Positions 4,240 through 29,347 of a stretch of 34,017 nucleotides of DNA are shown piece by piece; position 1 is the first letter of the stretch; every line of letters begins with the position of its first letter. The notes beneath the pieces are model-generated. The model was not told where the DNA came from and ran no database searches. It saw only the letters and a program-made list of their open reading frames with translations. The stretch comes from Spirochaetota bacterium (GTDB lineage: Bacteria > Spirochaetota > UBA4802 > JAGODF01). A program made the position numbers and the translations under genes. The stretch lies in NCBI GenBank assembly GCA_026419015.1, contig JAOAAF010000022.1, positions 1 to 34,017 of the forward strand, in the 5' to 3' direction.

Positions 4240-4497
4240 AAGTTGCTCCTTATCTCAAAAGTTTTTTGTTTACATCTGCTCACATGTTGGTAATAAAACC
4301 ACTCTCCTTGTAGCGACCGATGCGGTGTTATTCGTGAATTGTCATAAATATGGACGCACATAAGGGCACTTTTTGTCAAGGCAATTCAGCGAAAAAATAG
4401 TTGTTGCCATGCGAAAATACAAATGCACCATAGCAACAATTACATCGGAGGGTAACCACTTTTGTGTAGTATTGATTTTTTATTTTTATGGGGGATT

Positions 4498-5559
4498 ATG
4501 AGAAAGAAGTGTGCGATTTTTATATGTGGCTTGATTTTTGTATTTGCCTGTGGTTCTTGGAAAATAACCACCTACACAAGCAGTGTTCTTTGTGCCATTG
4601 AAAATGGTATTGAACCAGGCAAGGTGAAGCTTGTATTTGGCGATGATGGCATTTTCGATCTCACATTTGGGATTAAGGTTTTTCGCGGGAGAATTTACCT
4701 TACTGACAATGCGTTAAAGCGCCTGCAGGTATTCGCTCGTGATGGGTCGTTGGAATTATTCATTGGTCCTAAGGGATCTGCGCTGCCAAAATCGAGCGAT
4801 GTGAGGAGTTCTTATTTTAATTTTAGCGTAATGGGGAATTTGGTTATTGATTCGAAAGATAGGTTATATGTACAAAATCGAATCGTCCCTTCTGAGTCTT
4901 CAGGAAGCGATGAACTCGATTTTTCTCCTTCATACATTCTCGCATTCGATAAATCGGGTGCATTGCAATATACGCTTGGCCGTCATGGAGCACCAAATAT
5001 CCCATTCGATTTTATCGAAAGCATTGAAGTGGATAGATCCGATCGCCTTTTTGTCGTTTCGAGAAAATTCAACAACTGGACGGTAAGCCGTTTTCACGAG
5101 CAAAAGCTGACATTTAGCGAGAGCTTTTCGAATTCCAATTTCGTCGATCAGGAACACGACAAAACTAATGAGGGGAAAATCGATTGCATCAAGATTTTAA
5201 GCGATGGTGAAGATTTTTTGATATCTGTTGCATATTACCACGGATTGCGTTTTAAATATCGAAAAATTTATCACTATTCAATTAAAGATCGTAAAATCAC
5301 GCGAACGTTAGTAGATTTGCCAGATCCGAAAAATGAGATATTTGCTGTAGTTGAGGATTCCCAACTTTACCTGTGGAATGTGGAAGAACGGCGCACACGG
5401 TTTATGGTGCTGAATTTTTCGGGAAATATCGATCACAATATTTTGTTGAAATTTGACGAACGGCGATATTTCTATCAGGATATTCTTCTCGATGATTCTG
5501 CGGCGTTTTATTCTTTTCGGGTGAACAAAAACAATGTGGAAGTTCTGGAGTGGAAGTGA
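4498..5559 (+). CDS. Putative lipoprotein with NHL/6-bladed beta-propeller-like repeats
   Basis: MRKKCAIFICGLIFVFACGSW has a lipobox-like Cys; LTFGIKVFRGRIYLTDNALKRLQVFARDGSL, NLVIDSKDRLYVQ and FDKSGAL repeats. Start chosen at the ATG preceding the signal peptide. Confidence 0.72.
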   Translation: MRKKCAIFICGLIFVFACGSWKITTYTSSVLCAIENGIEPGKVKLVFGDDGIFDLTFGIKVFRGRIYLTDNALKRLQVFARDGSLELFIGPKGSALPKSSDVRSSYFNFSVMGNLVIDSKDRLYVQNRIVPSESSGSDELDFSPSYILAFDKSGALQYTLGRHGAPNIPFDFIESIEVDRSDRLFVVSRKFNNWTVSRFHEQKLTFSESFSNSNFVDQEHDKTNEGKIDCIKILSDGEDFLISVAYYHGLRFKYRKIYHYSIKDRKITRTLVDLPDPKNEIFAVVEDSQLYLWNVEERRTRFMVLNFSGNIDHNILLKFDERRYFYQDILLDDSAAFYSFRVNKNNVEVLEWK

Positions 5560-7163
5560 TGAAAGTGGTCACAGCTGAACAGATGCGCCACATCGATGCA
5601 GAAACGATACACCGTTTTGGGATTCCCCCCGAAGTGCTCATGGCGTATGCGGGAAGGGTTGCGGCAAACTATATCCTGGATGAATATGCGCAGATCGTGG
5701 ATATTGCCGTCGTGTGCGGTTCAGGTAACAATGGAGGAGATGGATTTGTCATCGCATATTTGCTTTCAAATAGCGGAAAGAATGTTAAAGTTTTTTTTGT
5801 TGGCGAAGAAGAAAAGCTATCGGAAAGCGCACGCATATATTGTCGCCTCTGCAAAAATGCAGGAATATCAGTTGTGCCATTTTCCGAAGAAAATGTCGAC
5901 GAAATTATAAAAAGTCCATTGGTCGTCGATGCTATCGTGGGAACAGGATTTTGCGGAAGCGCACGTGGAAACGTGGCGCGCGCAATCGCAGCAATCAACA
6001 AAAGCGATGGTATTGTCATTTCAATTGATGTGCCAAGTGGCTTACCTGCTGATGGAGAGGCTCCAAACGGTGAAGCAGTGTATGCTGATGTTACCATCAC
6101 CATTGGCCTTCCAAAAATTTCCCTTGTGACTTATCCAGGAAAGCAATATGCGGGAAAATTGGTTCTTGCAGATATTGGTTTCCCGCGTTCGCTGTGTGAA
6201 TCGAGCGAATTGAAGTCGGAATTAATTGACGAACAATACATCGCAACGCAATTCCCATATTCGCGCGATCCCGACGCGCACAAACGCTCGTGGGCACATG
6301 TGCTGTTTGTCGGGGGATTCGATGGCATGGAAGGTGCCCTTCTGCTTGCAACAACGGCTTTTTTTGAAACAGGGGGAAGTATCGCAACAGCCCTTACCAC
6401 AGCAAGTGCGAGAAATGTCATTGCAGGCAAAATACCTGAACTAATGACAGCGGCAATTGCGCCCAACAAAGCGCTGAATGAAATCATTGAAAAACGTGAT
6501 CACATTAATTTCAACGATAACATTTTAAATGACGTCAAATCCGCGTTGAACGATTTTTTTTCTCAACAAAAACAGTTTGGAATTGTTGTCATAGGACCTG
6601 GGATGGGACGCGGAGTTTTTTCGAAAGTTGTATTTGAAGTGCTTGTTGAAGAAGTCTGGCGTTTTGGAATAACAGGCATGATTATCGACGGCGATGGGCT
6701 ATTTCATCTTGCGAACTTTATTAACGAAAAGAAATCGGTAAACGGCAATGTCCTCATCACACCGCATTTCCTTGAAGCATCGCGAATTTATGGGAAAACG
6801 GTCGAAGAAATAAAAAGAAATCGATTTCAGGCTGCGCTTGAGCTTTCAAGGCACTGCAATTCGGTAGTTCTTTTGAAAGGTCCAGCCACAATTGTGACAA
6901 ACGGAATTGAAAGTTTAATCAACACGACGGGAAATCAGGCGTTAGCAACAGCAGGTTCTGGAGATGTGCTCTGTGGGATTATCGCCGCGCTTGCAAGCAG
7001 AGGGATCACGCTTATGGAAGCAGCTGCGCTTGGCGCATGGATTCATGGTCGCGCAGCAGATCTTTATGTTCGCGCGACGGGGAAAAATGCCATGAGAGCA
7101 ACAGATATTGTGAAGTACATTGGCGAGGTGTTGCGAAGCATTCATGAACGTCGCTTCTGTTAG
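5559..7163 (+). CDS. nnr: Bifunctional NAD(P)H-hydrate epimerase / ADP-dependent (S)-NAD(P)H-hydrate dehydratase
   Basis: VVCGSGNNGGDGFVIAYLL (YjeF_N) and LLKGPATIVTNG...NTTGNQALATAGSGDVLCGIIAAL (carbohydrate-kinase-like domain). ATG at 5559 with TGATG overlap. Confidence 0.95.
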   Translation: MKVVTAEQMRHIDAETIHRFGIPPEVLMAYAGRVAANYILDEYAQIVDIAVVCGSGNNGGDGFVIAYLLSNSGKNVKVFFVGEEEKLSESARIYCRLCKNAGISVVPFSEENVDEIIKSPLVVDAIVGTGFCGSARGNVARAIAAINKSDGIVISIDVPSGLPADGEAPNGEAVYADVTITIGLPKISLVTYPGKQYAGKLVLADIGFPRSLCESSELKSELIDEQYIATQFPYSRDPDAHKRSWAHVLFVGGFDGMEGALLLATTAFFETGGSIATALTTASARNVIAGKIPELMTAAIAPNKALNEIIEKRDHINFNDNILNDVKSALNDFFSQQKQFGIVVIGPGMGRGVFSKVVFEVLVEEVWRFGITGMIIDGDGLFHLANFINEKKSVNGNVLITPHFLEASRIYGKTVEEIKRNRFQAALELSRHCNSVVLLKGPATIVTNGIESLINTTGNQALATAGSGDVLCGIIAALASRGITLMEAAALGAWIHGRAADLYVRATGKNAMRATDIVKYIGEVLRSIHERRFC

Positions 7164-7201: not shown

Positions 7202-7555
7202 ATGAGTAAAGCGAGATGGGTAAAAATATTTTCTTTTATACTTATTTTCGTTTTTGTAGTGAATGCAGTTCGAGATTCGTTGTTCTCTATTGCATTTCTT
7301 TCGCGAGTTTATGCGCAAGACAAAAAGGATCGTTGTCACAATTGCGATGAGGACAAAAAAAGTAAAAATCCCATTTGCGCATTTACATATATTGCCTTGT
7401 TTTTTTGGTATTCGATGATGGCCATCGCCTGTGCGGTTGCAATTGTGATGGATCTTACAACAGGTTTTACGCAAGGGTTCACTGCATCGTTTATCGAGTG
7501 GTTTATTGATTCAACGAACAAACTATCGCGTTTTTTTCGTTCTATTGGGTGTTGA
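7202..7555 (+). CDS. Small membrane protein with CxxC-like segment, unknown function
   Basis: 117 aa, two hydrophobic segments flanking KKDRCHNCDEDKKSKNPIC; fills the gap between nnr and the AsmA-like gene. Confidence 0.6.
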   Translation: MSKARWVKIFSFILIFVFVVNAVRDSLFSIAFLSRVYAQDKKDRCHNCDEDKKSKNPICAFTYIALFFWYSMMAIACAVAIVMDLTTGFTQGFTASFIEWFIDSTNKLSRFFRSIGC

Positions 7556-7632: not shown

Positions 7633-10554
7633 ATGATACGAAAGAAAGAAACTGAAAAAAAACAGAAGGGAAAGATAGTTCGAAAAGATGAAACAATTCA
7701 AAAAAATGCTGCCCAGGCACATTTAAGCCCCGATGAAGAAAAAGGGGAAAGTTCGGTTGGCATTTCTCCGCCACGTCGCGTAAAAAAAAGCCGCATTGTG
7801 TTTAAAGTTGCAAAAATACTTTTGTTGTATGTTCCTCTTTGCGTGCTCTTTTTCGCAATTATTGGCATTGCAGGCCTTTCCATTTATCTTACTCCACAGC
7901 GCGCAGAGAAGCTTATTGTGGAACAATTCAATGCGCGCTCGTATGGCGACATTACTTTAAAGGTAAAGCGGTTTGGCCTTTTTAGAGGTTTTGAAATCGA
8001 AGATGTAATAATCCGCAATGGGGAAGAATTTGGCAGAACGCCTTTTGTGGAAATAAAAAGAATTGTGTGCGATTATCGGATTCTCCCAATGTTGGTGGGC
8101 AATGTGAGGATCAATGAAATCGGGATCTACCAGCCCCGAATCTATCTCAAAGAAAGAAACGGTGTGTGGAATGCCGCGCGTCTCATGAAACCAGGAGAGC
8201 CTCGCAAAGAAGAAGAGAAGCCAGAACCTGAAGAAGAGCCAAGAAAGGAATCGAGAGAAGAAATTTCTCTTCCGATTTCTGTTGAATTTTTGTTTAAATT
8301 CGTCTTGGAGGATTTGCGCGTTTATGCAGAAGGAAGTGGCATGAAAACATCGCTTGAGGGATTTTCGTGTGGGGTAGACGTTTATGTGCCTCCTTTTAAG
8401 AAAATACCTCTTTCGTCCATGGCGGTTTCGATATTCGAACGCATGAAGATTGAACTCAATCCCAAAGAAGAACTCAATCTGCATTTTGTGTCTGAGACGG
8501 CTGAAGTAAGCCCACCGTTGATATTGTTTTGGAAACTTGTGTACAAAAAACCACATACACCTGAAGAAGCTCCGCATTTTGAGAGTAGCCTGAAATTGGG
8601 TACTTATCGCACTCCGGTGCGATTTAAACGTGCACATTTAGCACCGCTTTCTTTTCTTGTATCGTACGATATGCTTTACAATCCAGCAAATGATCTTTTG
8701 AATCTTAATCATTTTACTATTTCTTTCTCCGGGAAAAAGCTTATAAGCCTTAGCGGGGAAGTGCGTGAAGTGACAACGCGTCAACGTTTCAACATCCGCA
8801 TGCTCGAAAGCAATATTTCGCTTACCGATTTATATCCGTACTACCGTAGCATTACAGGCGATACGGCGATGCGATTTGCCGGTAGCGTTTCTTTATATCC
8901 TTTCATTGTGAAAGGTGATCCAAAAAATATCGATGTCGATGGACAGCTTCGGATTGGGAACCTATATTTTAGAAATCCTGCAATCGAAGCGCGCGTCCCT
9001 GCTATGATGCTTGGCTATTCCGTGCGCATGCGCGGAAATGACGTCGCACTCCTTTCCGATTTAAAAATACCGCATTTTGATTATGTGCTCAACCGTGGGA
9101 AATCGGGTGACAATGGCCTTTTACTTTCCTTAAATGCGCAGTACAATTTAAAAAACCAATATTTGCTTTTAAACGATATCTCTATGAGATTTTATAGCCC
9201 GGCAAGTGGCAGGGATGCGCTAAAACTTGGGCTTAACGGAAAAGTCTCCCTTGCGCCCGTGATGGTTGGAAATGTGCGCATGGCGACGTTTCAATTCATG
9301 AAAGATCCCCTTTTGGAGATGGTGCCAAAGCCAATGGCGAGGGATTTGGGAACCGCTCTGGGTGCATTGAAGAATCCTGTAAATCTCGATCTTTCTACTG
9401 GGTTTCGTATGGACACGCGTACCATTGCTGCCGATGTGTTGCTTGCCTGTAAAATACCTGATTTTAAGATCAACGATTTGGTACTTACGGCAAATATAGA
9501 ACAAAACGCACTTCGAAAGATGCTGTTTATTCGGAAAGTGAATCTCTCAAGCAAGGAAAGGAATTTGAGCGTTGATGTCGGTGGTCAATTGGATTTGGAA
9601 AATCCACCGGGTAAGAATACCGATGTAGGGCTGCGTATTTCGCTTAATATGCCCGAGATGAAAGAGGTATTTGAGAAATGGGCTCTTTCCGGCAATGTAG
9701 AAATTACTGCTCGCCAAAAAGGGGATATTAAAACGGGAGTTGCTTTGGGAGCAGTGAAAATTGCTCATCTGAATGTAAAGAATCCAGAAAAAAAAGTGCA
9801 CATTGAGGATTTTAATTTGAATTTTCCATTTGAATACAATCACAAAATTCGGTTAAGCGAGTCGAGGATTGCCGTCGATAAAAGCACCTTGCTCGAAACT
9901 GCGTTTTTCCGAGACAGGGACAATTTTACCATCAAGTCCATTTCCATAAAACATCCTGCGCGGGACATTTCTTTTCAAATAATTAAAGATTTTTCGGCAA
10001 CGATGTTTTTCCGCGACAACACCTTTGAAATTCCTACCATGAAGGCGTATGTGATGGGAGGCGGTTTTTATGGGCGCAATATCCTCTTCGCTCTTCGCGA
10101 TTTTAAAACCGATAATATGGAATATAGCCTTACATTGGATGTGACAAATGTCGACATTGGGCTATTGGATGAGCCAAATCCTCAGAAAAGGACTCGCGAT
10201 GCTGAGCTTTCATTAAACGCGCAGTTTAAAGGGCGAGGCGTGGATGTCAAAAAAGAACTGACGCCCGTCGGTTACATTAATATTCATAAAATTGGAGATA
10301 AATTTGCTAATCGGTTGTTGAAAGGGCTTTCAAGCGAGAAAGGAAGATCGAAATTGGGAATTGCCCAATATCCAGTTGATAACTCAATGATGGTGAGCGG
10401 TTTTAATTTCAATCTCGATAAGGGATTGGTCTATACTACTGTAACGTTCAATCGCAAAGCGATTGGGTGGTTGGTGGGCATTGAACAAAATAAGGTTCAG
10501 TTTGAAAGAATAAAGTTGCAAGAATATCTTCGCAACATATTAGGAGGAGATTGA
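7633..10554 (+). CDS. AsmA-like / YdbH-type large envelope protein (putative intermembrane lipid transport)
   Basis: 973 aa, cytosolic basic N-terminus, one TM (ILLLYVPLCVLFFAIIGIAGLSIYL), long beta-rich AsmA/DUF748-style body; adjacent DUF1318 gene. Confidence 0.65.
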   Translation: MIRKKETEKKQKGKIVRKDETIQKNAAQAHLSPDEEKGESSVGISPPRRVKKSRIVFKVAKILLLYVPLCVLFFAIIGIAGLSIYLTPQRAEKLIVEQFNARSYGDITLKVKRFGLFRGFEIEDVIIRNGEEFGRTPFVEIKRIVCDYRILPMLVGNVRINEIGIYQPRIYLKERNGVWNAARLMKPGEPRKEEEKPEPEEEPRKESREEISLPISVEFLFKFVLEDLRVYAEGSGMKTSLEGFSCGVDVYVPPFKKIPLSSMAVSIFERMKIELNPKEELNLHFVSETAEVSPPLILFWKLVYKKPHTPEEAPHFESSLKLGTYRTPVRFKRAHLAPLSFLVSYDMLYNPANDLLNLNHFTISFSGKKLISLSGEVREVTTRQRFNIRMLESNISLTDLYPYYRSITGDTAMRFAGSVSLYPFIVKGDPKNIDVDGQLRIGNLYFRNPAIEARVPAMMLGYSVRMRGNDVALLSDLKIPHFDYVLNRGKSGDNGLLLSLNAQYNLKNQYLLLNDISMRFYSPASGRDALKLGLNGKVSLAPVMVGNVRMATFQFMKDPLLEMVPKPMARDLGTALGALKNPVNLDLSTGFRMDTRTIAADVLLACKIPDFKINDLVLTANIEQNALRKMLFIRKVNLSSKERNLSVDVGGQLDLENPPGKNTDVGLRISLNMPEMKEVFEKWALSGNVEITARQKGDIKTGVALGAVKIAHLNVKNPEKKVHIEDFNLNFPFEYNHKIRLSESRIAVDKSTLLETAFFRDRDNFTIKSISIKHPARDISFQIIKDFSATMFFRDNTFEIPTMKAYVMGGGFYGRNILFALRDFKTDNMEYSLTLDVTNVDIGLLDEPNPQKRTRDAELSLNAQFKGRGVDVKKELTPVGYINIHKIGDKFANRLLKGLSSEKGRSKLGIAQYPVDNSMMVSGFNFNLDKGLVYTTVTFNRKAIGWLVGIEQNKVQFERIKLQEYLRNILGGD

Positions 10555-11141
10555 TGCGCATCGGAATAATTATTCTTTTTTTGATAATTTCTATGTGGGT
10601 ACTCGTTGGGTGTACCTCGATGAGTGAAATCCCAAGTTGTTGTTGGATTGCGCCTCCAGATATTCACCTCACAGGACAGAAGACAGCAATAGAACGTCAA
10701 ATTGTGGGCGATTTTAGGGAAATCGAAAAGGAAGCATGGATTGTTTCATCTGTTCAAACAGGAATTTCGCCAGGAAAGTTGCAAAGAGATGAAGAAATGT
10801 TTAACGCATTTAAGGTAAGAAATGAACTCGCTGCTGAAATACGGAGATTGAAAGACGAGGGAGCAATCGGTGAAGCGAATAGCGGTTATCTTGCCTATAT
10901 AGGTACGGCGGAATATGAGAACGACACTACCAGAAAGAAAGCATTGCAGTCAATAATTGCGAAGGAAAACGATGCGCGAAAAATAATATTTACACGAAGC
11001 CTCGTGAGAGCAGGGATTGCTAATCCTACGGTTGAGCAAATTAACGCATTTGGGAAAAAGTTCGCTGAAGAACAGCGGGCATTTGCGAAGGAAAACGATT
11101 GGATTCAGGAGGCTGGAGGGCGATGGATACGAAAAAAATAA
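10554..11141 (+). CDS. Lipoprotein, DUF1318 (YdbL)-like
   Basis: Lipobox WVLVGCTSM; PPDIHLTGQKTAIERQIVGDFREIEKEAWIVSSV, and GAIGEANSGYL...IIAKENDARKIIF resembling YdbL 'GEqrNGYLg...N..R...Y..iA'. ATG follows the AsmA stop (TGATG overlap). Confidence 0.7.
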   Translation: MRIGIIILFLIISMWVLVGCTSMSEIPSCCWIAPPDIHLTGQKTAIERQIVGDFREIEKEAWIVSSVQTGISPGKLQRDEEMFNAFKVRNELAAEIRRLKDEGAIGEANSGYLAYIGTAEYENDTTRKKALQSIIAKENDARKIIFTRSLVRAGIANPTVEQINAFGKKFAEEQRAFAKENDWIQEAGGRWIRKK

Positions 11142-14100
11142 CCGCAGCTGTTGCGTTTTGTAGCGTTGCAGTTGTGCTGATAATCTTACTTGCATCGTGT
11201 GGGGGGAGAACGCGACGAGAGGTCCGTTTTAGTTATGGGACAATTCTTCGCAACGAATTCATTTATAATGTGGGGAAAGTGGTACCAGTTACAATTGAAC
11301 AAACAATCGAGTTTGATGGCATTTTCTCTGAAGATGGTCAGTATTTATTTTACGCATCGGATAAACAGCAAGGAAATTTCGATATATACCTTCGCGCTCT
11401 CGACGATATCACAATGGTGAGAATTACCTCGCACCCTGCGAAAGATTATTCCCCCGCGATTTCGCCCGACGGGAAGCGGCTCGCATTTGTGAGTTTGCGA
11501 GAAGATCCCGAAGGGGATATCTTTGTTGTTGACATCAATCCAACTGCGTTGTTAGACAAGGCGGCGCAATCTCCTACCGATGTTCCATCGCTTGATGGGA
11601 AATCGAAAAACCTCACGCAATATCAGGATCCCGTCACAAAGGATATTCGAATCATTCGCGATGCATCGCCTTCATGGTCACCCGATAGCCAGTGGATTGC
11701 CTTTTCTTCAAATCGCGATGGCATCGATAACGTATGGATGATTCAGCGCAACGGGAAAAATCTCACCCAAATTACAAAAAAAGGCGGCCTTTTCCCGCGG
11801 TTTTCGCCGGATGGAAAGAAGCTCATTTACATTTCGTATGAGGACGAGAAAGGGAAGGGGGATATTTACATTAAAGATCTCATTACCGGAAAGGAACAGC
11901 GCATTACTGCAACCCCGCATATTGAATTGCATCCCTGTTTTATGAGCAACAACGACGAGATTGTATATACATTTATCGATCGAGATACAAACGGAGATGG
12001 AAAAATTAACTTAAAGGATGCTTCGCTGATAATGTATAAGAATCTCAAAAGCGGCTTGGAATATCCCCTTACGCTGAGATCGCAGAACTCGTTTATGCCG
12101 CGCTTTAGCCAGGCGTTAAAAAAACTCAATGAGCGATTTTTCAATGTAATCATTTTTTCCGACCAAATTGGGGAAAACATTAACATTAACATTATCCCCG
12201 AAGAAGGGGTAATTCCCAAAAAAAGCAATGCGCAAACGCAATACGAATTAGCACAGACATATCTTACCGAGTATGATGATAAAGAACGGTATCTGCTATG
12301 CCTCGAGAGAGCATATCATTTCTTTGGCGATAAAAAGGATAATGCCTCAGTTATTTTCGTTGGAAAGTCGCTCGTGGAAGCAGCAAAAGCATTCCGCGAT
12401 GTAAAGAATTTAAGCGAAGCTGAAAGAATTGAAAAATTATTATCTTCTATTTCTAAAGATGTTTATGATTACCGTTCTGTCATGGCACGGTATTTGAATG
12501 CAGTGTCGAAAGGCATATCGGGAGAGAAGGTTCTTTTGGATGCGATTGCGGTTACTGCGCGCGAGGCAAAGTATTCTGAATATTTGCCGTATTTGCTTGA
12601 AGAATTGGGCGATGAACAAAAGCGATTGGGGAAAAGAGATGCTGCGTTGGAAACGTATAAAAAAGTGTTATTGGAAAATCCGAAATATGGCCGGACGGAA
12701 ATTATAAATTTTAAAATTGCCGATTTACAATACCAAATTGTGTTGCCTGAATTGCCAGAGGCATACGAAAGAGCAATAAACTCTGAACGCGAATATATTA
12801 AAATCGCTGCAGCGAAACAAATAATCAAAATTTTTTCAGCGGAGCCAAATATTAGCAAGCGCATACGCGTTGCTGAAGGCATATTGTCGAAAGTAGCAAA
12901 GAAGGAATCCGACAACATTATTCCCCTCATGCAATATATATTGGGCGAAGCGTATGTGGCGAATAGCGATTATGCAAAGGCGAAAACGTATCTTCAAAAT
13001 GCTGTGTCAAAAGTGAGCAAAACAAATTATTTATTCTATAAAGCGAATAAACTCTTAGGGGATATTGCGCACCGCCAATCGGATTTTGAATCGATGGAAA
13101 AATATTATTATCAAAATCTCAAAAATTACCTTTTCCGCTGGAAGCAATCGGATTTTCGCGATATCCTCACAAGGCTTGTTGATTACTATGAAGATCAAGG
13201 GGCGCGCTATCTTGCTGAAAAGAAAGAAGCGCGTGCTGCTGAAATATATGAAAAGTACATTGAGGTTGTTACAACCGCACATTTGTTGCGCGAATTCGAC
13301 GATATATATCAAGCGTACGGTTCGCGCGCCCACGTGTTGTACATAGATTCATTTGCGAGGACATCTGAAAAAGAAAAACTTTTATCCCTTGAAGCGAAGT
13401 ACACCGACAAGCTTTCGATTGCCCGGTTAAATTACGACAAAGCATATCTATATGGCCTTGGTTATATTTACACAAAACTCGGATTGCTATACGATGAAGG
13501 AACAGGTGAGAGTTTAGAAAAATCGCTTGAGTCTTTTAAGAAAAGCCTCGACCAACTCGCATGGGCGCTTTTTATGGACGATACGTATGTGGAACCATAC
13601 ATACTTCGTGGGTGGATTAGTCAATATATCGATTTGCGCCGAAAGGAACTTGGCGAAAGCAAACAATCCGTATTTGATAAATTCTTTCCGCGATTCTTGT
13701 GGGAAGCAAATGTCCCCTTGTATGAGCGCGCCCTCGCTGCAAACGATGAAACAAAAAATCCAGAAGGCGAAGGAAATATTCACCTAAATTTAGCAAATAC
13801 ATATTTTCTGCTGAATAATTATCCACAGGCGCTTCGACATTTTGAAAAAGCGAAAGAGTATAAGAGGGAATTCGCTTCGCCAATCCAGGAAGCGCTTTTC
13901 CATTTTCATATGGGCGTATGTTACTGGCAAAACGATAAAATCGAAGAAGCGCGCGAACAAATGCGAAGAACGCTTTTGATATATAATTCGCTTGCACAAA
14001 AATATGGATACGATCGCTTTAAAGAACAAGTTTATACGCTCTATCGGTATTTTGCACTTTTTGATAGAGTTGAAAGAAATTTTCATCATGCAATACATTG

Positions 14101-16453
14101 GTACAATGAACTTCTTGCCCATGCAGAAAAGAATAAAATTTCAATCGATAGATCTCGCATCTATCAAGAGATTGCACATTGTTATAGAGAATTGGGAAAT
14201 CGCCAGAAATCTCTCGAATATCTCGATCGTGCTGATGAACTAATAGCGCATGAGACTGATAAGGAAAAAACATACAAATTGCGATTTAAGGTATTGGGTA
14301 TTGGCCCAATAAGCTTTATCGATTTAGGCCCCGATACGGTAGTGATTGGCGATAATCGCTTATACGAAGAGTTGACCGCAGAGTATAAAAATATCTTAAG
14401 CCTTTCCATGCGAGAAGAATTGCACTACGATGCAGGCGATTATGCTTCAGCGATAAACTATTTAAAGAAAAAGCTTGCTTGCTGGGAGAAAAAAAATCAC
14501 CGCCTAAATAAAATCGGCAAAGTGCGCACCTTGAATAATATTGGCTTTTGTTACTACAAAATGGGTTATTTCGATAAAGCTCTCGAATATTTCAAAAGTG
14601 GGTGGGATTATGCTTCGCGCGATGATGTAAATGATCTCGAAGGTGTTTTTAATACAATTTTAAATTACTCAAATCTTTGCACAATACTTTTCGAACGGGG
14701 AAAAGATGTGCTGGGGAATTCATTTGATGTTGTAATTCGAGAAATTTCGAGATACAGGGACAATTATGAAAATCAAAAATTCGAGACCGATTTAGCGACA
14801 AAGCAAAAAGAGATGAAACTAAAAAAACAAGAGCTTACGCGCGAAGATGTTGATGCGATCCGCAGGAATGCAAAAACCGCTGCAGATGAGATTTATCATC
14901 AATTGGAAGTAGCACTCGGTTCGTTAAAATTTGCAAAAGCAGAACTTTTAATTGAAGAGCATGAAGTTGAAGGAATCGATCCGCATCGCTATTATCGGCA
15001 AAATCAGAAAATATATGATCTTTACGCTGAAGCGCTTCAACATTTTCAAAAATCGCTCGAATATGCTGATAAACATAAAAACAGTAAAGTAAAGTGCAAA
15101 CTGTTGATGAATATCGCGTCGTGCCACCAAAAACTTGGAGCCTATGAAGACGCATATGATGCGCTCGGGCGAGCCGAAACGATTGCAAACACTTTTGCAT
15201 ATTCAGATCTCATATGGGTGGTGTACTATAAGCTAGCAGAATTTTTGCATCGATACGGAGTTCATGTCGAAAAAGCTGCAATGCAAATGGCACGCGAATA
15301 TTACAACAAAGCAATCGATGAGCTCATTGCATGCCCACAATGCAATGCATCGCAGGTACACTATGCACAAATGCTTTTCGATAGCTTCACGCGCTTTTTG
15401 CTCGAAGAAGGGCAATGGAAAGAAGCATTTGAAGTTATGGAGAAGGGGTACGCGGTTAAACGCGCGATGAGTATCTCGGGTGCTGGCTGGGATTTTTATG
15501 ATCGTTCCCATAAGGAAAAATTCGATGCACACAGAATGTTAATTCGTGAGTTATCCGATGCGCGCGCGAACTTTTCAGCACTTTTAGAAGCAGGAGAGTC
15601 GCGAGATTCGGAAAAGGCAAGGCGAGCCCAAAAAATAATTTCCGAAAAGATTAATCGACTTCGCGAACACGAGAACATGCTCAAGAAGGATTCTTCACTC
15701 TTTTCATCATTTTTGGCCGTAGGAAATCCACAGGTTTTTTCTCCAACAAATGCTGTTGTTGTTGGATTTTTTAGTCTAAAAGAAAAAATTGGCGCATGGA
15801 GATTGGATTCGAACCTTTCGTATACTGAATTGAAGGCGAAAAATGCACACGAGGGTGAAAAAAGTGTTCGCGACTATCTAATGTCATTGTGCGGGAATCA
15901 GACAAAACGATGTTTTGTAGTGTTAAATAGTACTGCACTTTCTGTTTTGTCTCCTTCATCGCTCCAGCAATTCCCAGCGTTTACCTTTGTGCCTTCATTC
16001 GAACGCGCGAGATATTTTGCGATGAATGATAAACCGTTTACTAATGCCGTGGTAGCGGGTGGGAAAAAATTAATATCAGTTCTTCGAGGCGATAAAGAGT
16101 TATCTGGCATTCATATCGATGAGTATCGCGATATCTCAACTGACCTTGCAACTTATTCGATAATCGTCGCAGGGGAAGATGAATTTTCCATAGAGCCTTC
16201 GATTCTCTTTAAAAGAAAGCATTCGCCAGGATTATATATCGCTCGCTTTATGCCGCAGTCATTTGAACGGATGATATTGTGTACCGAGGCTGCATTATAT
16301 GCGGGATGTAAGGGTATAATTTTTCATAATCTTTCCAATGAAGGGAAAATTGCGAAGCTAATTGCGACGTTGCGTACAAAATCCCTTTCTGATGCGATGC
16401 GCAATTTTACCGATGGAAATATCGTTCCCATCGGAAGAGGAATTATCGAATAA
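11123..16453 (+). CDS. Giant lipoprotein: TolB-like WD40/PD40 propeller + long TPR solenoid + possible CHAT-like C-terminal domain
   Basis: MDTKKITAAVAFCSVAVVLIILLASCGG (lipobox); PSWSPDSQWIAFSSNRDGIDNVWMIQRNGKNLTQIT and FPRFSPDGKKLIYIS PD40 repeats; numerous TPR-like motifs; C-terminal ~250 aa CHAT-like in spacing. Internal ATG 11123 preceded by GGAGG preferred over 11099. Confidence 0.8.
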   Translation: MDTKKITAAVAFCSVAVVLIILLASCGGRTRREVRFSYGTILRNEFIYNVGKVVPVTIEQTIEFDGIFSEDGQYLFYASDKQQGNFDIYLRALDDITMVRITSHPAKDYSPAISPDGKRLAFVSLREDPEGDIFVVDINPTALLDKAAQSPTDVPSLDGKSKNLTQYQDPVTKDIRIIRDASPSWSPDSQWIAFSSNRDGIDNVWMIQRNGKNLTQITKKGGLFPRFSPDGKKLIYISYEDEKGKGDIYIKDLITGKEQRITATPHIELHPCFMSNNDEIVYTFIDRDTNGDGKINLKDASLIMYKNLKSGLEYPLTLRSQNSFMPRFSQALKKLNERFFNVIIFSDQIGENININIIPEEGVIPKKSNAQTQYELAQTYLTEYDDKERYLLCLERAYHFFGDKKDNASVIFVGKSLVEAAKAFRDVKNLSEAERIEKLLSSISKDVYDYRSVMARYLNAVSKGISGEKVLLDAIAVTAREAKYSEYLPYLLEELGDEQKRLGKRDAALETYKKVLLENPKYGRTEIINFKIADLQYQIVLPELPEAYERAINSEREYIKIAAAKQIIKIFSAEPNISKRIRVAEGILSKVAKKESDNIIPLMQYILGEAYVANSDYAKAKTYLQNAVSKVSKTNYLFYKANKLLGDIAHRQSDFESMEKYYYQNLKNYLFRWKQSDFRDILTRLVDYYEDQGARYLAEKKEARAAEIYEKYIEVVTTAHLLREFDDIYQAYGSRAHVLYIDSFARTSEKEKLLSLEAKYTDKLSIARLNYDKAYLYGLGYIYTKLGLLYDEGTGESLEKSLESFKKSLDQLAWALFMDDTYVEPYILRGWISQYIDLRRKELGESKQSVFDKFFPRFLWEANVPLYERALAANDETKNPEGEGNIHLNLANTYFLLNNYPQALRHFEKAKEYKREFASPIQEALFHFHMGVCYWQNDKIEEAREQMRRTLLIYNSLAQKYGYDRFKEQVYTLYRYFALFDRVERNFHHAIHWYNELLAHAEKNKISIDRSRIYQEIAHCYRELGNRQKSLEYLDRADELIAHETDKEKTYKLRFKVLGIGPISFIDLGPDTVVIGDNRLYEELTAEYKNILSLSMREELHYDAGDYASAINYLKKKLACWEKKNHRLNKIGKVRTLNNIGFCYYKMGYFDKALEYFKSGWDYASRDDVNDLEGVFNTILNYSNLCTILFERGKDVLGNSFDVVIREISRYRDNYENQKFETDLATKQKEMKLKKQELTREDVDAIRRNAKTAADEIYHQLEVALGSLKFAKAELLIEEHEVEGIDPHRYYRQNQKIYDLYAEALQHFQKSLEYADKHKNSKVKCKLLMNIASCHQKLGAYEDAYDALGRAETIANTFAYSDLIWVVYYKLAEFLHRYGVHVEKAAMQMAREYYNKAIDELIACPQCNASQVHYAQMLFDSFTRFLLEEGQWKEAFEVMEKGYAVKRAMSISGAGWDFYDRSHKEKFDAHRMLIRELSDARANFSALLEAGESRDSEKARRAQKIISEKINRLREHENMLKKDSSLFSSFLAVGNPQVFSPTNAVVVGFFSLKEKIGAWRLDSNLSYTELKAKNAHEGEKSVRDYLMSLCGNQTKRCFVVLNSTALSVLSPSSLQQFPAFTFVPSFERARYFAMNDKPFTNAVVAGGKKLISVLRGDKELSGIHIDEYRDISTDLATYSIIVAGEDEFSIEPSILFKRKHSPGLYIARFMPQSFERMILCTEAALYAGCKGIIFHNLSNEGKIAKLIATLRTKSLSDAMRNFTDGNIVPIGRGIIE

Positions 16454-21569: not shown

Positions 21570-22343
21570 ATGAGTACACCAAGTGAAATGGCCAATAAGG
21601 TGTTTTCAAAAAAAAATCAAATGGGAAATTCGACATCAAAAGTAGCGCTTCGTCCTGTGAACAGAAGTCGCCTTCATGAGGAGATTGTTTCACAAATCCA
21701 ACGGAAAATAATCTCAGGGGAGATCAAAGCAGGCGAAAAGCTTCCTGCGGAGCGCGAGCTTGCAGTAGAGCTTGGTGTGAATCGTGCAACTCTTCGTGAG
21801 GCGGTGAAAAAACTGGAAGCACAGGGTTTGGTGGAAGTTCGCCATGGCGATGGGGTGTATGTGAAAGACTTCCTCGAATCGGAGAATTTAGATGTGTTAA
21901 AAGCAATGATTTACCATGAGGGCGGTGTCGATTCAACGATAATCGACAGTTTGCTTATTGCCAGAATTGCACTGTTGCCAGAAATTGCCGCAGTGGCTGC
22001 GGTGAAGCGCAAAGACGAACATGTGCAGAAATTAAAGGAGATTGTAGAATTGGGGAAAAACATGCCCGCTCTTGAAGCGGATTTAGCTGTTCACCACACC
22101 ATTGCGAGAGCTTCTGAAAATTACCTCGTTATTTTTATTCTTAATTTTTTCAACAAGTTATTTCGTGAATATGGAAAATATTATTTTGATGATCCTCAAA
22201 ATGAAGAGCGCTCCCGAAAATTTCATCGGGAAATATTCAGCGCAATCGCACGCGGCGATGCACCGAGAGCAAAACGCATTATGCGGGATGTGCTCATTTA
22301 TGCGCGCGAGCGAACAATGAATGCGATGAGAAAAAGTTTATAA
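21570..22343 (+). CDS. GntR-family (FadR/FCD subfamily) transcriptional regulator
   Basis: LHEEIVSQIQRKIISGEIKAGEKLPAERELAVELGVNRATLREAVKKLEAQGLVEVRHGDGVYV wHTH; all-helical FCD-like C-terminus. Confidence 0.93.
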   Translation: MSTPSEMANKVFSKKNQMGNSTSKVALRPVNRSRLHEEIVSQIQRKIISGEIKAGEKLPAERELAVELGVNRATLREAVKKLEAQGLVEVRHGDGVYVKDFLESENLDVLKAMIYHEGGVDSTIIDSLLIARIALLPEIAAVAAVKRKDEHVQKLKEIVELGKNMPALEADLAVHHTIARASENYLVIFILNFFNKLFREYGKYYFDDPQNEERSRKFHREIFSAIARGDAPRAKRIMRDVLIYARERTMNAMRKSL

Positions 22344-22358
22344 ATTTGGAGAATCACA

Positions 22359-23999
22359 ATGAAGCGATTTATTGAAGATTACGATGGCAGTCAATTCGAT
22401 GTTATAATTATTGGAGGAGGAATTAGCGGTGCGGCGGTCGCGTATGAAGCCGCTTCCCGAGGCCTATCGGTTGCATTAGTTGAGAAAAGCGATTTTGGCG
22501 GTGCGACATCGGCAGCAACGTCTAAGCTCATTCACGGCGGTCTTCGATATCTTGCGACGGGAGAAATTTTGTTGGTGCGCGAATCGCTGCGCGAGCGTAG
22601 AATACTTGAAAATATTGCACCAAATTTTGTATATCCTGTCCCATTTATGTTTTTAACTGGGAATCGATTTCTTAGCCAACGGAGGTGGATAATTGAAATG
22701 GGCATGATCGTTTATGAAATGCTTTCGTTTGACAAGGGTTGGACATGGGATAAGAGTAAAAGAATTCCACGTCATTCGATAATTTCAGCGCGCAGAGTTT
22801 TGGAACTGGAGCCGCATGTGAAGCGAAAAGGGCTTACAGGTGCCGCAATATATTACGATTGCATGTCCATTTTTCCGGAGAGACTAACGCTCGCATTCAT
22901 CAAATCTGCGGTAAAATATGGGGCGAAAGTGGCAAATTATGCAAAAGTGGAAAGTTTTCTTTTTGATCACAACAAGCATGTCGCAGGTGTTGCCGTGCGC
23001 GATCTTCTTACTGGTAAAACGGTTGAGTTGCGAGGAAAACTCACCATCAATTGTGGCGGTCCATGGGCAGACATCATCCTTGGAATTGCACATAAAAAGC
23101 CGAAAGATGAAATTTTGCGGCGATCGGAAGGAATACATATTATAACGCGTAAACTGGTAAATAGCCATATTGTGACAGGTCCTACAAAAGATGGGAAACA
23201 CTTTTTTGTGATTCCCTGGCGCGATCACTCGCTCATAGGGACGACCGATAAGGAATACGTCGGTAGCCCCGATGAGTGGAGGGTCACGAAAAAATCTATC
23301 GAAGAGCTTCTTGATACGGTGAATGAAAACTTTGGGAATTTCGAAACTATTCGATACGGCGATGTGTTGTATGCGTATGGAGGGCTTCGGCCTCTTGTGG
23401 AAGATCAAACGAAAGACGTCTATGAAAGTTCTCGAAAATATGAAATTTATGATAACGCAAAGGATGGATTGGAAAATTTAATCACAGTGGAAGGGGGAAA
23501 GTATACCACAAGCCGCAATTTAGCTGTTAGTGTGATGAAGGTTGTGGCAAAAAAAATAAAAAAGCCGATTGGGAAATCGATTTCGCATTCGCAATACCTT
23601 GCAGGATGCGAAATTACCGATATAGAAGCGTTTGTGGAAAAATCGATTTCTGAAAACAGCGATTTCCCACCGCGTACGGTCGACTACCTCGCGCGAATTT
23701 ACGGGACAGAGCTTCCGAATGTGTTGGCAATTGCGCGTTCAAACAAAGGCCTTGCGCAACCGTTAAATCGCGATGGAGAGATGTTGGCGCAGGTAATGTA
23801 TGCTGTGCGCAATGAGATGGCAAAAACGTTAAAGGATATTGTGCTTCGAAGGACAGGCATTGCCACGTTAGGAAATCCAGGCGATGAGGTGCTTGCGAAG
23901 GTAGCACGAATTGCCGCGAAGGAACTTAAATGGGATGCATCGCGCCAAGCGAAGGAATTGGCAGAAACGAAAAGAGCACTTGAAGTGCCAAAAAATTAA
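22359..23999 (+). CDS. glpD: Glycerol-3-phosphate dehydrogenase (FAD-dependent)
   Basis: FDVIIIGGGISGAAVAYEAASRGLSVALVEKSDFGGATSAATSKLIHGGLRYL; EGIHIITRKL; VPWRDHSLIGTTD-like motif; C-terminal DAO_C-like domain. Confidence 0.9.
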   Translation: MKRFIEDYDGSQFDVIIIGGGISGAAVAYEAASRGLSVALVEKSDFGGATSAATSKLIHGGLRYLATGEILLVRESLRERRILENIAPNFVYPVPFMFLTGNRFLSQRRWIIEMGMIVYEMLSFDKGWTWDKSKRIPRHSIISARRVLELEPHVKRKGLTGAAIYYDCMSIFPERLTLAFIKSAVKYGAKVANYAKVESFLFDHNKHVAGVAVRDLLTGKTVELRGKLTINCGGPWADIILGIAHKKPKDEILRRSEGIHIITRKLVNSHIVTGPTKDGKHFFVIPWRDHSLIGTTDKEYVGSPDEWRVTKKSIEELLDTVNENFGNFETIRYGDVLYAYGGLRPLVEDQTKDVYESSRKYEIYDNAKDGLENLITVEGGKYTTSRNLAVSVMKVVAKKIKKPIGKSISHSQYLAGCEITDIEAFVEKSISENSDFPPRTVDYLARIYGTELPNVLAIARSNKGLAQPLNRDGEMLAQVMYAVRNEMAKTLKDIVLRRTGIATLGNPGDEVLAKVARIAAKELKWDASRQAKELAETKRALEVPKN

Positions 24000-24011
24000 T
24001 GGAGGAATGCT

Positions 24012-25733
24012 ATGTCGGATGCATGGAAAGGATTCAAGCCCCCGTGGTTCGAAGAACCTCCTGCGGAAAAATCATACCGTTCAATTTTTAAATGGGGCGA
24101 TCCATGTGGATTTAAGCATCCAAACGAGAAGCTGTACAAGGAAATTAAAAGTGCGTTTGGACTAACTGACGAAGATTTTCAAAGGCGAGTCAATGAAGGA
24201 AACGAACAAGTGCGGTTTACGAAACCTATTGGGTTGACACCAAGGCAGATTGCACAAATCGCAAAGATCGTCGGCGAGAAGAATATATCGACGGAACAGT
24301 ACGATCGCTTAAAATATTCTGTGGGGAAGACAATTGAAGAGGCGATGAAGCTTCGCAAAGGAATTGTAGAAAAGGTGACCGATGTAGTGGTTCATCCGCG
24401 CCACAAACAAGATGTAAAGGAACTGGTGAAATTTTGTAATCGCGCACGAATTCCCGTATATGTATATGGAGGGGGTTCATCGGTCAATTTTGGCCTACGG
24501 CCAGCGAAAGGGGGCATTACGCTGGTGCTTTCCACGCACATGAATAAAATTGTGCGCATCAGCGAATTGAATCAAACGGTAACAGTGGAAGCTGGTATTT
24601 TAGGGCCTGCCCTGGAAGATGCGCTTAACAATGCACCAGCGCGATTTGGAACAAAGCATCGCTACACGTGTGGGCATTTTCCACAATCGTTCGAATATTC
24701 ATCGGCGGGCGGATGGGTGGTAACGTTAGGATCAGGACAGGCATCGAGCTATTATGGCGATGCATATCATTTGGTTATCAGCCAGGAGTATGTCACGCCC
24801 GTTGGAACTTTCGTTACAAAAGAATATCCCGCCACTGCCACGGGTCCAAAAGTAAACGACATTATGAAAGGGAGCGAAGGGACATTTGGAGTGTTGGTGG
24901 AACTTACGCTGAAGATATATCGATATATGCCCGAAAACCGAAAATATTTTGGCTTTATTTTCCCCACATGGGAATCAGCAGTAAATGCTTCGCGGGAAAT
25001 TTCCCAAGGCGAGTTTGGTATGCCTGCGGTGTTTCGCATTTCCGATGCAGAGGAAACGCATTTTGGGCTCAAGCTATATGGCATCGACGGCACCATTTTC
25101 GATCGCGCAATGCAACTGCGCGGATTCAAGCCCATGCAACGCTGCCTCATGTTGGGAACAACGGAAGGGCATGCAGGCTTTACTGCGAACGTGAAAAAAA
25201 ATGTAAAACGAATCTGCAAAGAGTTTGGCGCAATGTACCTTACGGGATTTCCTGCAAGGAAATGGGAAGAGGGTAGATTTCGCGATCCCTACTTGCGAGA
25301 GGATTTGCAGGATTTTGGTATCATAACCGATACGTTGGAAACAAGCGTGACGTGGGAAAATATTCATCATGTCCATCAAAAGGTGCGGGAGGTGGTGAAA
25401 GCTCGTCCGCGCACGCTGTGCTTAACGCACGCGTCGCACTTTTATCCGCAAGGAACAAATCTCTATTTCATTTTTTTTGCACGAATGGATGATGTGCGCG
25501 AATATATTAAATTTCAAAGTGGAATTATCGATGCAATTGCCAAAAGCGGTGGATCGCTGAGCCATCATCATGGAGTGGGGCGAATGATAGCTCCCTGGAT
25601 GGAAGAACATTTGGGTAAAGAGCAAATGGCAGTGCTTCGTGCGCTAAAAAAACATTTCGATCCGCACAACATCATGAATCCAGGTGGACAGTTGGGTTTG
25701 GATTTAAAAGGTCGCGATTGGAGGAAAATATAG
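24012..25733 (+). CDS. FAD-binding oxidase, alkyldihydroxyacetonephosphate synthase (AGPS)-like
   Basis: VYVYGGGSSVNFGLRPAKGGITLVLSTHMNKI (FAD_binding_4), SLSHHHGVGRMIAPWMEEHLG and FDPHNIMNPGGQLGL AGPS-type C-terminus. Confidence 0.82.
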   Translation: MSDAWKGFKPPWFEEPPAEKSYRSIFKWGDPCGFKHPNEKLYKEIKSAFGLTDEDFQRRVNEGNEQVRFTKPIGLTPRQIAQIAKIVGEKNISTEQYDRLKYSVGKTIEEAMKLRKGIVEKVTDVVVHPRHKQDVKELVKFCNRARIPVYVYGGGSSVNFGLRPAKGGITLVLSTHMNKIVRISELNQTVTVEAGILGPALEDALNNAPARFGTKHRYTCGHFPQSFEYSSAGGWVVTLGSGQASSYYGDAYHLVISQEYVTPVGTFVTKEYPATATGPKVNDIMKGSEGTFGVLVELTLKIYRYMPENRKYFGFIFPTWESAVNASREISQGEFGMPAVFRISDAEETHFGLKLYGIDGTIFDRAMQLRGFKPMQRCLMLGTTEGHAGFTANVKKNVKRICKEFGAMYLTGFPARKWEEGRFRDPYLREDLQDFGIITDTLETSVTWENIHHVHQKVREVVKARPRTLCLTHASHFYPQGTNLYFIFFARMDDVREYIKFQSGIIDAIAKSGGSLSHHHGVGRMIAPWMEEHLGKEQMAVLRALKKHFDPHNIMNPGGQLGLDLKGRDWRKI

Positions 25734-28168: not shown

Positions 28169-29347
28169 ATGCCTTTATTAGCAGTAAAACAACGCAAAGA
28201 ACGGCCTTTTGCACCAATTGAGCCCATTTCAGAAGCAATTGAGCTTTTAAAAAATGAATTTGGGCGAAGGCGCATTTATGTAAAAAATTCATTTCCACGG
28301 TTGGAAGTTCAAATAAATGAAGTTCTCCCCGATGACACCTTTATGATAATTACCGATCCAGAATTTCAACCGCCTTCAAATACCCTTATAGTTTACGGGC
28401 TTTTAGATAAGTATATTGAATTCGATTTGCTAATACAAGAAATTAAAGGACCAGGATATTTTCATTGCCAGTGCGTTGGTGCGAGAAAAGCGCTAACTGG
28501 CAGGCGCGATGTGCGGTTTAAAATGGCTCCAGAAGATGTGGTTGCAACAAATTTTAAATTTTCGAAATATACCCTTGAACTTACAGGTCTCACTGTTCCT
28601 ACGGGTATTAAGGTGATTCTCGACCAATTCCATACTACCCACACTCATTTGGGAGATATTGTGAAAGTAGATGTTTTTCCACATGGCGATCCCTTACTCG
28701 ATGTGGTAAAAAAGACGGGCAATTCCGTTTTTGTTGAAGATATGGCGAATATTGAATCGTACCGCGCACAGATACCAGATATGGTGGATTTGGTGGAATT
28801 TTACGGGGATGAGATAAAAGAACAGATCAAGCGCAATGTGGAGCGCGGTTACAAATCGATGATCATTTGTCCTATTATATATTTGGACGAATCGGAAAAA
28901 TCCATTCCTTTTGCGTATATTCAAGTGATTTCTCTTAAGGAAAAGCTTGGGATCGATAAGCTTTTGGAATTGAAAGACCATGCATTTAAACTGGTAGATA
29001 GAATTCGAGATGCAAATACGGTACTTCTTCCCGTTCATCAGCAAATTCTCGATCTAAGCCGTGGAGGTGCAAAACTTAAAATTACCGATGATAACTTAAA
29101 AAAGTCCCTTGTAAAAGCGCGGGGTTTTATTTTTGACATAGTATTTAAACTACAGGCACCCATAACGATTTATGGCGAAATTAAATTTACCAGTACCGAT
29201 AAGGATGGCAACATGTATGTCGGCGTTGATTTTGCGGGAAATTCTTCGCGGAAAAATGAAATGAAGCGGTATTTGGATATGATACGTCCCATGGAAGTCG
29301 AGTACAAAAGGAAGCTCATGAAAGAAATGAAACATAAAAGCCAATAG
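28169..29347 (+). CDS. DUF1577/PilZ-like protein
   Basis: 392 aa soluble protein; LDLSRGGAKLKITDDNL resembles the PilZ [D/N]xSxxG element; overall resembles the Leptospira DUF1577 family. Confidence 0.6.
   Translation: MPLLAVKQRKERPFAPIEPISEAIELLKNEFGRRRIYVKNSFPRLEVQINEVLPDDTFMIITDPEFQPPSNTLIVYGLLDKYIEFDLLIQEIKGPGYFHCQCVGARKALTGRRDVRFKMAPEDVVATNFKFSKYTLELTGLTVPTGIKVILDQFHTTHTHLGDIVKVDVFPHGDPLLDVVKKTGNSVFVEDMANIESYRAQIPDMVDLVEFYGDEIKEQIKRNVERGYKSMIICPIIYLDESEKSIPFAYIQVISLKEKLGIDKLLELKDHAFKLVDRIRDANTVLLPVHQQILDLSRGGAKLKITDDNLKKSLVKARGFIFDIVFKLQAPITIYGEIKFTSTDKDGNMYVGVDFAGNSSRKNEMKRYLDMIRPMEVEYKRKLMKEMKHKSQ

What the first reader, a model, noticed from the sequence alone, without database searches (positions are those of the whole stretch)
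7633..16453. AsmA/YdbH-like + DUF1318/YdbL-like + giant sensor-type lipoprotein: candidate undescribed envelope module
Three tightly packed genes (overlapping stop/start at 10554 and a 19-nt overlap at 11123). The first two parallel the E. coli ydbH-(ynbE)-ydbL operon, whose AsmA-like YdbH is implicated in phospholipid transport between membranes. Here a ~1776-aa propeller/TPR lipoprotein follows, and the DUF1318 protein is itself a lipoprotein, possibly combining YnbE and YdbL roles. I am not aware of a described system with this combination.
Basis: partly seen in the sequence, partly recalled or inferred. Interest (0 to 1): 0.8.

Follow-up and report, generated by a model that had tools for sequence, protein, structure and literature searches.

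The report
Spirochaete envelope-bridge module with giant lipoprotein
Three neighbouring genes, found together across much of the spirochaete phylum, very probably make a protein bridge that carries lipids between the two membranes; two of them resemble a known E. coli system, the third is a giant lipoprotein with no known counterpart, and most of the genera that have the set lack the usual alternative bridge, TamB.

Summary
In detail: three same-strand, overlapping genes encode an inner-membrane-anchored AsmA-like protein (973 aa), a DUF1318 lipoprotein (195 aa) and a 1776-aa propeller/TPR lipoprotein. The DUF1318 protein is a true YdbL relative (Pfam above cut-off; its model matches the E. 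coli YdbL crystal structure, prob 1.00). The AsmA protein belongs to the uncharacterised NCBI family LIC_11026 (Leptospira-type) and is predicted as a long beta structure; specific YdbH homology and YnbE homology were not detectable. The trio is contiguous in all 19 own-order loci read. Across 393 Spirochaetota genomes the families co-occur almost all-or-none, even where the genes lie at separate places. In 84 of 108 trio genomes no TamB is found, whereas 223 of 285 trio-less genomes have it; within the own order, two members of a trio-less genus carry TamB. Best explanation: a YdbH-YnbE-YdbL-like intermembrane lipid bridge with a giant lipoprotein as added subunit, standing in for TamB in much of the phylum. 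Function, outer-membrane location and physical contact are inferred. The 'sensor' label is not supported. Some relatives carry a degenerate CHAT domain that is not detectable in the window's shorter protein. New variant of a known kind.

The parts
7633..10554 (+). AsmA-like protein, 973 aa, LIC_11026 family; N-terminal membrane helix then about 48 beta strands
7789..7887 (+). inner-membrane anchor helix (residues 53-85)
   Evidence: AlphaFold2 secondary structure; hydrophobic stretch visible
9913..10551 (+). best-conserved C-terminal part (residues 761-973), the end expected near the outer membrane
   Evidence: phylum-wide conservation profile
10554..11141 (+). DUF1318 (YdbL-type) lipoprotein, 195 aa
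10554..10613 (+). lipoprotein signal peptide with lipobox LVGC (lipid Cys20)
   Evidence: sequence; conserved pattern
10644..10763 (+). conserved N-terminal segment (residues 31-70, PP.I.LTG.KT..E+QI.G...E.E.D.W), predicted unfolded alone; candidate partner-binding strand
10827..11135 (+). DUF1318 / YdbL domain (residues 92-194)
   Evidence: Pfam; Foldseek to 28oj
11123..16453 (+). giant lipoprotein, 1776 aa
11123..11200 (+). lipoprotein signal peptide, lipobox LASC (lipid Cys26)
   Evidence: sequence
11306..12142 (+). TolB-like beta-propeller (PD40 repeats, about residues 62-340)
   Evidence: PD40; TolB model, below its cut-off; TolB structures
12500..15442 (+). TPR solenoid (about residues 460-1440)

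Best explanation
The three genes encode one envelope-spanning machine that works like E. coli YdbH-YnbE-YdbL. The AsmA-like protein is anchored in the inner membrane by one helix and reaches across the periplasm as a long beta groove along which phospholipids move (anchor and beta structure predicted; transport inferred). At its conserved C-terminal end it is met by the lipoprotein, which sits in the outer membrane by its lipid and offers a short, highly conserved segment that has no predicted fold of its own and would dock onto the groove, as YnbE does on YdbH; the attached YdbL-type domain controls that docking (contact and role inferred). The giant lipoprotein is a third, phylum-specific subunit: its propeller and TPR solenoid would hold or place the bridge at the outer membrane (inferred). 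The module stands in for TamB in the many spirochaete lineages that lack TamB (inferred from distribution).
For: Domain identities. YdbL fold match E 4.4e-5, prob 1.00, TM-score 0.82 on the target and hhalign to YdbL prob 93. AsmA model: membrane helix 53-85, then about 48 strands, mean pLDDT 83. Trio contiguous in 19/19 own-order loci and in the f34 and most f11 loci read. All-or-none in the own order: the same 36 of 46 genomes by all three families. Phylum-wide, DUF1318 and giant share 90 genomes, 14 and 4 have one only, 285 neither, also where the three genes are unlinked (f22, f41). Congruent trees. Flanking genes differ between clades, so only these three stay together. Conservation peaks in the AsmA C-terminus and the lipoprotein N-terminal segment, and the latter is predicted unfolded alone. 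No TamB in any of the 36 own-order trio genomes; TamB in two genomes of a genus that lost the trio.
Against: No experiment and no contact prediction. YdbH-specific and YnbE homology not detectable. Foldseek of the AsmA model against the PDB gave nothing with E <= 0.001. The distribution statistics are not corrected for shared ancestry. Brachyspira-like f15 and G049 appear to have both systems, and 62 genomes show neither.
Confidence: 0.55

Rival explanations
1. The AsmA protein and the DUF1318 lipoprotein form a lipid bridge, but the giant lipoprotein is an independent envelope scaffold that is only co-inherited with them.
For: In f15 the AsmA and DUF1318 genes are adjacent while the giant lies about 0.5 Mb away (G139). 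In E. coli the system works without such a protein.
Against: Contiguous overlapping genes in several deep clades, joint absence in the trio-less genomes of the own order, and retention as a set where unlinked.
Confidence: 0.2
2. The module assembles or exports proteins (outer-membrane barrels or surface lipoproteins) in the manner proposed for TamB or GspN, rather than moving bulk phospholipid.
For: It is distributed almost complementarily to TamB, which has a barrel-assembly role (PMC11341756, PMC11014939). A GspN-Lepto model gives a weak hit to a Brachyspira-like member (E 5e-4). GspN is AsmA-like and acts in lipoprotein surface transport (PMC12802150).
Against: The YdbL partner is specific to the E. 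coli lipid-bridge operon, and no barrel protein or secretion gene lies beside the trio.
Confidence: 0.15
3. An ordinary operon of envelope genes with no joint mechanism; the TamB pattern is only phylogeny.
For: Both systems follow deep clades; only the g13 swap is clearly a recent, separate event in these data.
Against: The unlinked-but-co-occurring pattern and the joint absences.
Confidence: 0.1

Closest known systems
E. coli YdbH-YnbE-YdbL (ydbH-ynbE-ydbL operon)
   Same: IM-anchored AsmA-like protein, then a lipoprotein, then a DUF1318/YdbL domain; overlapping genes in the same order; YdbL fold confirmed.
   Different: YdbL is here fused behind a lipid anchor and a conserved segment; there is no separate YnbE; AsmA part not detectably YdbH by sequence; extra giant lipoprotein.
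NCBIfam NF047499, LIC_11026 family protein
   Same: The AsmA gene product is a member or near-member (314 bits, cut-off 325; f11 orthologue 1004 bits).
   Different: The family is only named 'hypothetical equivalog'; neighbours and function are not described.
TamB (TAM)
   Same: Long AsmA-superfamily envelope bridge, as predicted.
   Different: No PF04357 match; near-complementary distribution; no Omp85 partner beside the trio.
TolB, and T9SS PorE-type TPR/propeller lipoproteins
   Same: TolB-like propeller; a lipoprotein with TPR and propeller is also known from PorE (own knowledge).
   Different: Far larger; TPR follows the propeller; no OmpA-like domain was found; not in a tol or T9SS locus.
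CHAT-domain TPR proteins
   Same: C-terminal CHAT hits in some relatives (L024 1.2e-8, L034 4e-7, L104 1.5e-11).
   Different: In the own-order relatives the usual His and Cys positions look lost by eye; not detectable in the window protein.

Membership tests
YdbL / DUF1318 (PF07027) | profile match above the curated cut-off | tested here: met
   40.6 bits against 27; all 20 orthologues match
YdbL / DUF1318 (PF07027) | YdbL fold | tested here: met
   Foldseek to 28oj E 4.4e-5, prob 1.00
AsmA-like superfamily | AsmA or DUF748 N-terminal profile match | tested here: met
   as a family: AsmA 17/20 members, DUF748 15/20; the window protein alone is below the Pfam cut-off (26.4 vs 29.8)
AsmA-like superfamily | N-terminal IM helix and long beta groove | tested here: inconclusive
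   helix and about 48 strands predicted, but no PDB fold match with E <= 0.001
YdbH (PF11739) | YdbH-specific profile or sequence match | tested here: not met
   1 of 20 orthologues, E 0.019; hhalign not significant
YnbE (PF13617) | YnbE profile match | tested here: not met
   no member of the alignment hits it; no match over the cut-off in 10 genomes; hhalign no better than shuffled
YnbE (PF13617) | binds the C-terminus of the AsmA protein by strand addition | not testable with these tools
   no complex prediction available
LIC_11026 family (NF047499) | score above 325 bits | tested here: inconclusive
   window protein 313.9 bits; orthologues 435-1004 bits in f34, f22 and f11
TamB (PF04357) | TamB C-terminal domain | tested here: not met
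   G000 has no match
CHAT peptidase (PF12770) | CHAT domain with His-Cys dyad | tested here: not met
   not detectable in the window protein; the dyad looks lost in relatives that have the domain
Two-component or other sensor protein | kinase, receiver or other signalling output domain | tested here: not met

The most novel reading that the evidence does not exclude
In the TamB-less part of the Spirochaetota, including Leptospira-type lineages, this three-protein module is the main route by which phospholipid reaches the outer membrane, with the giant lipoprotein as an obligatory subunit that no other phylum is known to use, and TamB and this module have replaced one another during evolution.
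Probability: 0.35. Interest if true: 0.85.

Novelty: new variant of a known kind. Interest (0 to 1): 0.68.

Why it matters
How phospholipids reach the outer membrane has been worked out mainly in Enterobacteria, where three AsmA proteins are redundant, and a 2024 review calls it unknown how glycolipids reach the spirochaete surface (PMC11784454). A phylum-wide, single-copy module in TamB-less spirochaetes would give a system in which one bridge can be tested without redundancy, and a natural case in which the YnbE-type contact and YdbL are joined in one lipoprotein. It also puts a candidate function on LIC_11026 and on a 2500-aa lipoprotein family for which no description was found.

Tried and rejected
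YnbE homology of the lipoprotein N-terminus looked convincing by eye but failed hhalign against column shuffles (153 of 300 shuffles scored as high), so it is kept only as an idea. YdbH-specific homology: not significant. CHAT domain in the window protein: looked alignable by eye but a profile of the relatives' C-termini does not find it. Foldseek of the AsmA model: best hits are apolipoprotein B and LptD, E above 0.001, low TM-scores, not used. An apparent 11,060-aa open frame in G196 is a masked run of N. LipL32 as a marker for Leptospira gave nothing, controls included, so Leptospira itself was not identified among the held genomes. The genome-contig scan used two short patterns and finds close relatives only, so restriction to Spirochaetota is not proven. 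A read-through fusion of AsmA and DUF1318 for structure prediction was considered and dropped, since no coordinates or contact scores are returned.

Full report
The window is contig 124 of a draft Spirochaetota genome: it equals G000:C124, and all but one of its relatives in the named collection are titled as spirochaete MAGs or as an uncultured bacterium, the exception being one labelled Hydrogenedentota, whose genome matches G175 of the same phylum.

What the proteins are. The first has a membrane helix at residues 53-85 and then almost only beta strands in a confident model. It scores 314 bits against the NCBI family LIC_11026 (cut-off 325), and its orthologues in Leptospira-like family f11 score up to 1004 bits over the full length. 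AsmA and DUF748 profiles hit most members, YdbH's own profile hardly. The second is a lipoprotein whose C-terminal domain is DUF1318. Sequence and fold (E. coli YdbL crystal structure 28oj) agree that it is YdbL-type. Between lipid anchor and domain lies a segment absent from YdbL, the best-conserved part of the protein across the phylum (residues 31-70), which AlphaFold leaves unfolded (pLDDT about 45-60). The third is a lipoprotein with a TolB-like propeller and a long TPR region. It is 1776 aa in the window and 1787 aa in a sister genus, but about 2250-3070 aa in most full-length relatives elsewhere, some of which end in a CHAT domain; the window's C-terminal 250 residues remain unassigned.

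Conservation of the set. All 19 own-order loci read in full carry the three genes in this order. In the own order, 36 of 46 genomes have all three families at strong score and the other ten lack the DUF1318 and giant families entirely and have at most weak AsmA hits. Phylum-wide (393 genomes), DUF1318 is found in 104 and the giant in 94, with 90 in common. Most of the 14 DUF-only genomes are f15 members just under the giant's cut-off, or f34 genomes, two of which proved on reading to carry a giant. The trio is contiguous in f34 and in most f11 loci. In f22 and f41 the three genes lie at three places, in f15 the giant is elsewhere, and all are kept. Trees of the three proteins are congruent (AsmA and giant share 18 of 23 splits). 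Flanking genes change from clade to clade. G088 and G139 have the replicon lengths of Turneriella parva and Brachyspira murdochii; this rests on memory, not on a tool.

TamB. The TamB profile hits none of the 36 own-order trio genomes, but hits G014 and G026, two members of a genus that lacks the trio, where TamB lies beside an Omp85-type gene. Phylum-wide, 24 genomes have both, 84 the trio only, 223 TamB only and 62 neither. All but one of the 24 are f15 (Brachyspira-like) genomes with weak TamB hits. The counts are not corrected for descent, and four members of the trio-less genus show neither system. TamB in spirochaetes beside BamA is known (PMC4494059); a complementary AsmA system was not found described. 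G000 has no YhdP match either, but has MCE proteins, as do all 46 genomes of the order.

How it most likely works. By analogy with YdbH-YnbE, where the OM lipoprotein meets the C-terminus of the bridge (PMC12977461, PMC12045153), the AsmA protein would span the periplasm, and the DUF1318 lipoprotein would close the gap to the outer membrane with its conserved unfolded segment while its own YdbL domain limits or guides that contact. YdbL as a chaperone-like protein follows the depositors' name of 28oj and own knowledge. The giant would scaffold or place the bridge. Shown here: domain identities, YdbL fold, co-conservation, congruent trees, complementary distribution. Inferred: outer-membrane location, contact, lipid as cargo, role of the giant.

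Limits. No YnbE homology could be shown, no YdbH-specific homology and no fold match of the AsmA model in the PDB. Whether the set exists outside Spirochaetota was not tested properly.

Noticed in passing
window 21570-25733: GntR/FadR-type regulator, glycerol-3-phosphate-dehydrogenase-like flavoprotein (DAO) and an FAD-linked oxidase that by eye resembles alkyl-dihydroxyacetonephosphate synthase: a candidate ether-lipid gene group (Pfam families).
   Followed up: partly
window 10638-10640 (Cys29 of the DUF1318 lipoprotein): A cysteine a few residues before the PP.I motif is invariant in all 53 orthologues aligned. In members without the N-terminal insertion it is the lipid cysteine; in others, the window's included, it follows a separate lipobox cysteine. 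Unexplained.
   Followed up: partly
L075 and L076 (G125), L077 and L078 (G186): f11 genomes carry two AsmA-DUF1318 pairs and a second giant gene elsewhere: paralogous copies of the module.
   Followed up: no
L130 (G014): TamB next to an Omp85-type gene in a genus of the own order that lacks the trio; four other members of that genus show neither trio nor TamB.
   Followed up: partly
window 4462-5559 and 5550-7163: A secreted protein without Pfam match overlaps the NAD(P)H-hydrate repair gene; the pair is conserved in the sister genus locus L021.
   Followed up: no
window 7202-7555: 117-aa hydrophobic protein directly upstream of the trio, without a Pfam match and not found at the related loci.
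   Followed up: no
window 28169-29347: DUF1577 protein with a C-terminal PilZ match.
   Followed up: no
L132-L133 (G196 contig 81): Bases 1-32000 of this contig read N, which makes an apparent 11,060-aa open frame in the giant gene; an artefact of masking.
   Followed up: yes
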